Shown piece by piece: positions 45,905 to 47,604 of a stretch of DNA of 64,000 nt. This stretch comes from Candidatus Mycobacterium wuenschmannii (GTDB lineage Bacteria; Actinomycetota; Actinomycetes; Mycobacteriales; Mycobacteriaceae): positions 1,426,001 through 1,490,000 of the forward strand of contig NZ_CP126981.1 of the NCBI RefSeq assembly GCF_030252325.1. Direction: 5' to 3'. The notes under the pieces were generated by a model. It saw nothing but the letters and a program-made list of their open reading frames with translations. It did not search any database and was not told where the DNA came from. Position numbers and translations under genes: made by a program. Every line of letters begins with the position of its first letter. Position 1 is the first letter of the stretch.

Positions 45905-47604
45905 GTCCACAACTGAGACCACCGAAAGTCGCCGACGTGTTGGCCGGTCAGGGCAATGCCGTCGACTCGCGATACCACTTGGCGGCCGCGACGCGGCGCC
46001 AGCTCAACAAGGTCTTCCCCACGCACTGGTCTTTCCTGCTCGGTGAGATCGCCATGTACAGCTTCATCGTGCTGCTGCTCACCGGCGTGTACCTGACGCT
46101 GTTCTTCGACCCCTCGATGCAGGAAGTCACCTACAACGGCGTCTATCAGCCGCTGCGTGGTGTGGAGATGTCGAAGGCGTTCGCGTCGGCCCTCGACATC
46201 AGCTTCGAGGTTCGGGGCGGCCTGTTCGTCCGTCAGGTCCACCACTGGGCCGCGCTGCTGTTCGCCGCGTCGATCATGGTGCACCTGGCCCGGGTCTTCT
46301 TCACCGGCGCGTTCCGCCGACCCCGTGAGGCGAACTGGGTGATCGGCTCGCTGCTGCTGATCCTGGCCATGTTCGAGGGCTACTTCGGCTACTCGCTGCC
46401 CGACGACCTGCTGTCCGGCATCGGCCTGCGCGCGGCGCTCTCGTCGATCACCTTGGGTATGCCGGTGGTCGGCACCTGGTTGCACTGGGCGCTGTTCGGC
46501 GGCGACTTCCCCTGCGGTGGCGCCGGCAACGATTGCGCAACGGCGGGCTACATCGTGCCCCGGATGTACGGCCTCCACATCCTGCTGCTGCCGGGCATCA
46601 TCCTGGCGCTGATCGGCCTACACCTCGCGTTCGTGTGGTTCCAGAAGCACACCCAGTTCCCCGGTCCCGGCCGGACCGAGAACAACGTCGTCGGCGTGCG
46701 CGTCATGCCGGTGTTCGCGGTCAAGTCGGGTGCTTTCTTCGCCTTCACCACCGGCATCCTCGGCCTGATGGGCGGCCTGCTGCAGATCAACCCGATCTGG
46801 AACTTGGGTCCCTACAAGCCTTCTCAGGTGTCGGCCGGTTCGCAACCGGACTTCTACATGATGTGGCCCGACGGGTTGGCCAGGCTCTGGCCGGCGTGGG
46901 AGTTCTACTTCTTCCACCACACCATCCCCGCGACGGTTGCGGTCGGGACGCTCATGTTGGGGATCTTCGCGCTGCTGATTGTCTATCCGTTCCTGGAGAA
47001 ACGGTTCAGCGGTGACCGCGCCCACCACAACCTGTTGCAGCGGCCGCGGGACGTCCCCGTGCGGACCTCGATCGGCGCCATGGCCATCGCGTTCTACATG
47101 GTGTTGACGCTGTCGTCGATCAACGACATCATCGCGCTGAAGTTCGACATCTCGCTGAACGCGACGACCTGGATCGGCCGCATCGGCATGGTCGCGCTAC
47201 CGCCGATCGTCTACTTCGTCACCTATCGGTGGTGCGTCGCGTTGCAGCGCAGCGACCGGGCCATCCTCGAGCACGGCATCGAGACCGGCATCATCAAGCG
47301 ACTGCCGCACGGTGCCTACATCGAGCTGCACCAGCCGCTGGGCCCGGTCGACGACCACGGCCACCCCATCCCGCTGGAGTACCAGGGCGCCGCGCTACCG
47401 GTGAAGATGAACAAGCTCGGCTCCGGCGGCGCTCCGGGATCGGGCAGCTTCCTCTACGCCGATCCGCCGGCAGAGGCCGACGCGCTGACCGAGGCCGCCC
47501 ACGCGTCGCACCAGCGCTCGCTGACCGCTCTGCGCGACCGCCAGGGTGGCAGCAACGGCAATGGTTCGACGAACGGCCACGGCTCCACCAACGGTCACCA
47601 CTAG
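45901..47604 (+). CDS. qcrB: Cytochrome b subunit QcrB
   Basis: QcrB is the cytochrome b of the bcc menaquinol:cytochrome c reductase and holds the Qp site, target of telacebec (Q203). The 567 residues have eight or more helices, paired heme-b histidines (VRQVHHWAAL, LHILLLPG region) and the PEWY-equivalent segment. Compared with the recalled M. tuberculosis sequence there is a 10-residue insertion at 205-216 (CGGAGNDCATAG). MMWTEGLAR of M. tuberculosis reads MMWPDGLAR here (Pro323-Asp324). The C-terminal tail ends in NGNGSTNGHGSTNGHH. ATG overlaps qcrA. Confidence 0.96.
   Translation: MSPQLRPPKVADVLAGQGNAVDSRYHLAAATRRQLNKVFPTHWSFLLGEIAMYSFIVLLLTGVYLTLFFDPSMQEVTYNGVYQPLRGVEMSKAFASALDISFEVRGGLFVRQVHHWAALLFAASIMVHLARVFFTGAFRRPREANWVIGSLLLILAMFEGYFGYSLPDDLLSGIGLRAALSSITLGMPVVGTWLHWALFGGDFPCGGAGNDCATAGYIVPRMYGLHILLLPGIILALIGLHLAFVWFQKHTQFPGPGRTENNVVGVRVMPVFAVKSGAFFAFTTGILGLMGGLLQINPIWNLGPYKPSQVSAGSQPDFYMMWPDGLARLWPAWEFYFFHHTIPATVAVGTLMLGIFALLIVYPFLEKRFSGDRAHHNLLQRPRDVPVRTSIGAMAIAFYMVLTLSSINDIIALKFDISLNATTWIGRIGMVALPPIVYFVTYRWCVALQRSDRAILEHGIETGIIKRLPHGAYIELHQPLGPVDDHGHPIPLEYQGAALPVKMNKLGSGGAPGSGSFLYADPPAEADALTEAAHASHQRSLTALRDRQGGSNGNGSTNGHGSTNGHH

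What the first reader, a model, noticed from the sequence alone, without database searches (positions are those of the whole stretch)
46861..46875. QcrB carries Pro-Asp at the telacebec (Q203) contact residues Thr313-Glu314
The codons at 46861-46875 read Met-Trp-Pro-Asp-Gly. From memory, M. tuberculosis QcrB reads MMWTEGLAR, with Trp312-Thr313-Glu314. Allowing for a 10-residue insertion upstream, Pro323 and Asp324 here align exactly with Thr313 and Glu314. Changes of Thr313 give Q203 resistance in M. tuberculosis. A proline there predicts natural resistance to Q203-type drugs and a locally different Qp pocket.
Basis: partly seen in the sequence, partly recalled or inferred. Interest (0 to 1): 0.7.

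Follow-up and report, generated by a model that had tools for sequence, protein, structure and literature searches.

The report
Alternative quinol pocket in mycobacterial QcrB
A mycobacterium carries a natural change in the exact spot of its respiratory enzyme that the tuberculosis drug candidate telacebec grips, and it also keeps a second copy of that enzyme part with a differently altered pocket, so its response to such drugs cannot be guessed from one gene.

Summary
Confirmed: codons 46861-46875 read Met-Trp-Pro-Asp-Gly, and P323-D324 align with T313-E314 of solved M. tuberculosis QcrB. A sister genome has the same codons, so it is no read error. The gene is the intact qcrB of ctaE-qcrC-qcrA-qcrB. 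For the organism it is incomplete: the genome holds a second, orphan qcrB with T313-E314 but other altered drug contacts (C178, M184, F187, Q317), one qcrA and one qcrC match, and no cytochrome bd found. In the genus, 57 of 297 genomes have two or more QcrB matches (upper bound); a Pro313 pattern occurs in 11 of 297, ten of them multi-copy, by about six changes; one origin is rejected. Orphan copies depart from operon-conserved residues disproportionately in the quinol pocket, though some outside columns change as much. Best reading: working QcrB isoforms with recurrently remodelled Qp pockets; isoform assembly, drug response and the selecting force are untested. Four searches found no mycobacterial orphan QcrB in print.

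The parts
43255..43866 (+). ctaE, cytochrome aa3 subunit III, first gene of the cluster (start codon inferred)
   Evidence: translation and motif
43863..44729 (+). qcrC, diheme cytochrome c subunit (overlaps ctaE and qcrA by 4 bases); one match in the genome
   Evidence: translation with CxxCH motifs; copy number
44726..45904 (+). qcrA, Rieske subunit (overlaps qcrB by 4 bases); one match in the genome
   Evidence: Pfam QcrA_N and Rieske; copy number
45901..47604 (+). qcrB, operon copy, 567 aa, intact
46516..46545 (+). approximate place of the 10-residue insertion relative to M. tuberculosis QcrB; common in related operon copies
   Evidence: alignment gap; similar loop in many of 80 related loci
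46861..46875 (+). Met-Trp-Pro-Asp-Gly; P323-D324 = M. tuberculosis T313-E314
46852..47025 (+). codons 318-375: excess of amino-acid change against the T-E sister G189, without excess of synonymous change

Best explanation
The window encodes a working cytochrome b of the menaquinol:cytochrome c oxidoreductase (bcc of bcc-aa3) whose quinol-oxidation (Qp) pocket is a natural variant: Pro for Thr313 and Asp for Glu314. SHOWN: alignment, intact gene and cluster, conserved core histidines and PDFY motif, a sister genome with the same codons, a second orphan QcrB in the same genome, one QcrA and one QcrC match, no cytochrome bd genes found, recurrent origin of P313, and a disproportionate share of orphan change in the Qp pocket. 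INFERRED: both QcrB proteins are made and use the one operon-encoded QcrA and QcrC, so the cell can build bcc-aa3 with two different Qp pockets. In the operon form the lost threonine hydroxyl and shortened acid weaken telacebec/TB47 anchoring while quinol oxidation continues; in the orphan form T313-E314 are kept, but Q317, M184, F187 and C178 reshape the wall.
For: Alignment to solved QcrB; ORF and codons. Second qcrB at G000:C1:3791959-3793524, 751 bits on NCBIfam NF050120 (window copy 737, cut-off 500). Purifying selection: dN/dS 0.06-0.09 in three pairs of window-type orphans, 0.08-0.09 in three P-type orphan pairs, 0.09-0.16 in three operon pairs of the window lineage and 0.04 in G228-G006 operons (other orphan clades not measured). 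Histidines 114, 115, 128, 195, 216, 231 kept in 47 of 47 orphan rows of 500 aa or more. Departure of orphans at operon-conserved columns: 17 pocket columns mean 0.22, 371 others 0.064, Mann-Whitney p=0.0013. P313: 11 of 297 genomes, 10 of these among the 57 with two or more matches (Fisher p=3e-7); six changes on a 117-row tree built without the motif; one clade rejected, p-AU 0.00013. Proline mutants resist TB47, and over-expressing even wild-type qcrB alone raised the M. marinum TB47 MIC to 32-64 ug/mL (PMC6355801), so an extra lone qcrB can matter. Single QcrA and QcrC matches. No cydA or cydB in G000 and G030, both present in sister G189.
Against: No expression, assembly, activity or susceptibility data for this species. 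Column and genome tests ignore shared ancestry: six of the P313 genomes hold it in one related orphan clade. Of the eight operon-conserved columns with most orphan change, four are pocket (317, 314, 161, 310) and four are not on my pocket list (390, 224, 174, 219). Independent-pair tests of orphan status against pocket residues are not significant, and P313 is not tied to orphan status. G244 has P313 with a single QcrB. Seven of 51 orphan rows keep A317, four of them (G055, G087, G204, G206) with M310 too. The orphan of the window genome lacks the C-terminal stretch with histidines 476 and 478. Codons 318-375 are also faster in the G189-G261 pair (pN 0.141 against 0.076, p=0.02). Natural P313 could be compensated elsewhere in the pocket.
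Confidence: 0.65

Rival explanations
1. Neutral or compensated drift: P313-D314 is a tolerated state of the Qp wall that arises now and then, most easily where a second qcrB relaxes constraint; any drug effect is incidental.
For: P313 is scattered (six changes) and mostly in multi-copy genomes; codons 318-375 of the window lineage took many amino-acid changes (pN 0.193 against 0.033 outside, G000-G189, p=1e-10) without dS change; E314D alone is frequent; several non-pocket columns of orphans change as much as pocket ones.
Against: Pocket columns as a set change more than others; dN/dS is low in the pairs measured; P comes with D in four of the P313 lineages and with E in G188 and G270.
Confidence: 0.25
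2. Target diversification against natural Qp-site poisons: soil mycobacteria keep or evolve QcrB forms whose pocket is not recognised by inhibitors made by neighbours; telacebec happens to use the same contacts.
For: Positions 310, 313, 314, 317 are telacebec contacts and 161 lines the quinone site (PMC8616580 passages); M. abscessus QcrB is naturally telacebec-resistant through residues that by an offset of 3 equal 182, 314, 317 and 396 (review PMC10877060; the offset is my inference); 29 of 48 orphan tree rows carry F161 with D314 and I/V/L317.
Against: No producing organism, compound or inhibitor-responsive regulation was found; orphan neighbourhoods differ between clades and most neighbours were not given a function here.
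Confidence: 0.25
3. Isoform tuning of respiration: the second pocket changes menaquinol affinity or rate for some growth state (low oxygen, dormancy), as proposed for QcrB3 of Streptomyces coelicolor.
For: S. coelicolor has paralogues QcrB2 and QcrB3, and QcrB3 is suggested to replace QcrB in spores (PMC7931247 passages); an AraC-family gene lies divergent to the window genome's orphan; the lineage lacks cytochrome bd.
Against: Cytochrome bd loss and multi-copy QcrB do not go together in the genus: 4 of 29 genomes without cydA are among the 57, 53 of 268 with it (p=0.62; nine of the 29 were identified by elimination). No expression data.
Confidence: 0.2
4. The P-D segment was brought into the window's operon qcrB by recombination from another copy.
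For: In G026 the tandem copies differ in codons 312-344 at silent sites (pS 0.57 against 0.15, p=5e-5), and over codons 318-350 the P-D copy is nearest to G244.
Against: In the window lineage silent divergence from G189 inside codons 318-375 is not raised (0.39 against 0.35, p=0.72); for 312-344 it is raised in G000 (0.60 against 0.34, p=0.03) but not in G030 (0.39 against 0.35); no close donor among the rows compared.
Confidence: 0.08
5. Sequencing or assembly error at 46867-46872.
For: None found.
Against: Same two codons in the sister genome G030, whose gene differs at about 0.35 of silent sites.
Confidence: 0.01

Closest known systems
M. tuberculosis / M. smegmatis QcrB of the bcc-aa3 supercomplex (7e1v, 8ovc and others)
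   Same: Same family and gene order; at 158, 161, 164, 171, 175, 178-180, 183, 184, 187, 194, 304, 306, 310-312, 317 and 342 the window copy has the operon consensus
   Different: P313, D314, G339, G344, A347; 10-residue loop; second qcrB; no cytochrome bd found
Laboratory mutants at this threonine resistant to Q203 or TB47 (T313A, T313I; Thr323Pro, Thr323Ala, Thr323Ile of M. marinum / M. ulcerans)
   Same: Same residue, and for M. marinum the same proline (PMC6355801, section 9)
   Different: Here natural and shared by two genomes, paired with D314, in a genome with a second QcrB; phenotype untested
M. abscessus QcrB, naturally telacebec-resistant (Sorayah 2019, known here only from PMC10877060 and PMC13098918)
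   Same: Natural variation at the pocket; Asp at the position equal to 314
   Different: Window copy keeps A317 and S182; positions matched by offset (inference)
S. coelicolor QcrB2/QcrB3 paralogues
   Same: Extra cytochrome b genes besides that of the main cluster, one suggested to use the common partners
   Different: Distinct genus; no Qp-pocket comparison was made here

Membership tests
Actinobacterial QcrB (bcc cytochrome b) | Curated family model score over cut-off | tested here: met
   NF050120: window 737 bits, orphan 751, cut-off 500
Actinobacterial QcrB (bcc cytochrome b) | Core histidines (haem ligands among them) and PDFY motif | tested here: met
   Window copy and orphan L003 keep H114, 115, 128, 216, 231 and P306, D307, Y309; which are haem ligands is recalled
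Actinobacterial QcrB (bcc cytochrome b) | Lies with qcrC and qcrA | tested here: met
   Window copy: 4-base overlaps through the cluster. The orphan does not meet this
Telacebec/TB47-insensitive QcrB | Thr313 replaced by a residue known to give resistance | tested here: met
   P323 = T313; proline known from M. marinum mutants (equivalence of numbering inferred)
Telacebec/TB47-insensitive QcrB | Measured loss of inhibition in this species | not testable with these tools
   No assay; no susceptibility record for it in the listing
M. abscessus-type natural polymorphic QcrB | Asp at 314 with bulky residue at 317 | tested here: not met
   Window D314 but A317; its orphan E314 with Q317
Dual-QcrB system as in S. 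coelicolor | Second intact qcrB outside the cluster | tested here: met
Dual-QcrB system as in S. coelicolor | Paralogue enters the supercomplex | not testable with these tools
   Needs proteomics or co-purification

The most novel reading that the evidence does not exclude
Many mycobacteria run a two-target respiratory complex: one set of bcc-aa3 partners and two QcrB isoforms whose quinol pockets were repeatedly remodelled at the very residues that Qp inhibitors grip. Swapping the isoform would let a cell keep respiring through poisons of that site, an inhibitor-evasion route other than cytochrome bd; the window's lineage, which has no bd, may rely on it.
Probability: 0.27. Interest if true: 0.8.

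Novelty: new variant of a known kind. Interest (0 to 1): 0.55.

Why it matters
Telacebec (Q203) is in clinical development, and its contacts T313-E314 were described as conserved across pathogenic mycobacteria (PMC8616580, abstract). Natural P313 shows that an intact, selected mycobacterial QcrB can do without that threonine, which makes its role in quinol binding directly testable. The orphan QcrB copies mean that reading one qcrB gene cannot predict the response of a species to QcrB inhibitors, and they offer a natural set of alternative Qp sites.

Tried and rejected
Sequencing error: rejected by the sister genome. Recombinant origin of the window's P-D segment: tested, weak at best, though a tandem copy in G026 does look recombinant. 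Genus-wide link of cytochrome bd loss with extra QcrB: not seen (p=0.62); with P313: 2 of 11 against 27 of 286, p=0.29. Reciprocal swap of P-D and T-E between operon and orphan in the window genome: not supported, since the orphan's T-E is shared with G030 and G189 while the operon's P-D is only in G000 and G030. P313 in other genera: 0 of 230 genomes with a strict pattern. Independent-pair tests of orphan status against pocket residues: not significant. Structure prediction and fold search were not run: a solved relative aligns over nearly the whole length, and such models are not trusted for one residue.

Limits of the counts: the 57 multi-match genomes include fragments. Of those plus G244 (58), 50 were read, G005 for one of two copies; G013, G035, G137, G152, G159, G213, G253 and G255 were not fetched. 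Rows under 350 aa or 500 aa and the 48%-identical QcrB-like proteins of G138 and G197 were dropped from residue counts. Eight pairs of rows are the same gene fetched twice: the 129 operon rows are 122 distinct genes, the 51 orphan rows 50, and the 6 P313 operon rows 4. The tree used 20 of the 80 named loci. The COX1 search missed Corynebacterium glutamicum among its controls, so its single match in G000 is weak evidence; the cydA and cydB searches did find that control.

Full report
What is there. The stretch 46861-46875 reads Met-Trp-Pro-Asp-Gly inside an intact 567-aa qcrB at 45901-47604. The gene closes a cluster ctaE-qcrC-qcrA-qcrB with 4-base overlaps. Against the PDB the best chains are mycobacterial QcrB (8hcr_B, 7e1v_N), and P323-D324 fall on T313-E314 once the 10-residue loop after GGDFP is allowed for. 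That loop occurs in many of the 80 related loci and is not part of the finding.

Why those residues matter. In the solved complex the Thr313 hydroxyl binds the carboxamide of telacebec, Glu314 and QcrA His375 bind the imidazopyridine, and Ala317 is a contact (passages of PMC8616580). In M. smegmatis the equivalent Thr308 lies within 4 A of the drug and might also bind menaquinone (passages of PMC8523172). T313A arose in M. bovis BCG under imidazopyridines (PMC3534098, passages), and A317V is a Q203-resistance change (PMC6178619, passages). Proline at this residue is on record as well: TB47-resistant M. marinum isolates carried Thr323Pro or Thr323Ala, MIC over 128 against 0.001-0.008 ug/mL (section 9 of PMC6355801). 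That Thr323 there is Thr313 of M. tuberculosis is my inference. In the same table, over-expression of wild-type qcrB alone raised the MIC to 32-64 in M. marinum.

The second gene. The genome (5,102,433 bases, one contig) has two qcrB. The other, at 3791959-3793524 on the minus strand (521 aa), has no qcrA or ctaE near it; an inositol-monophosphatase-family gene overlaps its 3' end and an AraC-family gene is divergent upstream. It reads MMWTEGLQRLW: T313 and E314 kept, but C178, M184, F187 and Q317 differ from the operon consensus. It scores as QcrB, keeps the core histidines but lacks the tail stretch with 476 and 478, and is under purifying selection. QcrA and QcrC give one match each.

Genus survey. 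In 297 genomes of the genus, 290 have QcrB and 57 have two or more matching stretches, an upper bound since some are fragments. Of 58 genomes searched again, 50 were read. Most extra copies lie away from qcrA, at several different chromosomal places, with shared neighbours within many clades; G026 has a tandem pair in the operon. Orphans as one clade are rejected (p-AU 0.0005).

Residues. In operon rows 313 is T in 122 of 128 and P in 6 (4 distinct genes); 314 is E in 116 of 128; 317 is A in 123 of 128. In orphan rows 313 is P in 7 of 51, 314 is D in 37 of 51, 317 is A in 7 of 51, 161 is F in 31 of 51, 310 is L in 28 of 51. Among 388 columns at least 90% conserved in 127 operon rows, the 17 pocket columns depart in 47 orphan rows at mean 0.22, the 371 others at 0.064 (p=0.0013; 11 telacebec contacts alone p=0.03). 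The top eight columns are four pocket (317, 314, 161, 310) and four others (390, 224, 174, 219). Rows are related, so these p values are generous. On the tree P313 needs 6 changes, D314 11, F161 7, non-Ala317 8; F161 goes with D314 in 4.7 and with I/V/L317 in 5.0 of 6 independent pairs, median p 0.06. The eleven P313 rows are not one clade, nor are the four operon ones (p-AU 0.0001 and 0.002).

The window lineage. Its operon copy, with G030, differs from the T-E sister G189 by an excess of amino-acid change in codons 318-375 (pN 0.193 against 0.033, p=1e-10) with ordinary silent change; the same stretch is faster in G189-G261 too (0.141 against 0.076), so part of this is general. Substitution rather than import is favoured. 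G000 and G030 have no cytochrome bd subunit I or II by HMM search, G189 has both. Subunit I is found in 268 of 297 genus genomes, so its loss is uncommon, but it is not tied to P313 in general: the other nine P313 genomes have it.

Reading. The most likely account is two functional QcrB isoforms using common partners, with Qp pockets altered in different ways. For the operon form, loss of the threonine hydroxyl and, on peptide geometry, of one backbone NH, with a shorter acid at 314, should weaken telacebec and TB47. Selection by natural Qp inhibitors, tuning of quinol oxidation and compensated drift remain open.

Novelty. QcrB paralogues are known in Streptomyces coelicolor (PMC7931247, passages), natural QcrB polymorphism with telacebec resistance in M. 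abscessus (PMC10877060 and PMC13098918, passages), and proline at this residue in laboratory mutants (PMC6355801). Four searches aimed at extra mycobacterial qcrB copies found none described: of the QcrB papers holding a phrase, all eight were opened on passages and use it in other senses, or for Streptomyces; of the six papers two were opened, on other terms or for Streptomyces. Natural Pro313 was not mentioned in the passages seen, and no search was aimed at it alone. The library lacks most subscription journals.

Noticed in passing
L171 (G026:C1:3335792-3347238): Tandem qcrB-qcrB in the operon; the second copy reads P-D, and codons 312-344 have silent divergence 0.57 against 0.15 elsewhere, over 318-350 nearest to G244: a likely short recombinant segment.
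   Followed up: partly
G000 and G030 genomes: No cytochrome bd genes found (PF01654, PF02322) although sister G189 has both.
   Followed up: partly
   Followed up: partly
L219 (G138) and L221 (G197): More distant QcrB-like proteins, about 48% identical, reading WYVAWGDG at the pocket.
   Followed up: no
L165 (G045:C1:4169795-4179367): Orphan qcrB of the P-D type is broken into two open frames.
   Followed up: no
window 1800-19166: Cell division and cell wall cluster on the minus strand (FtsQ-, MurC-, MurG-, FtsW-, MurD-, MraY-, MurF-, MurE-, FtsI-, RsmH-like ORFs, named from recall of the sequences); ordinary.
   Followed up: no
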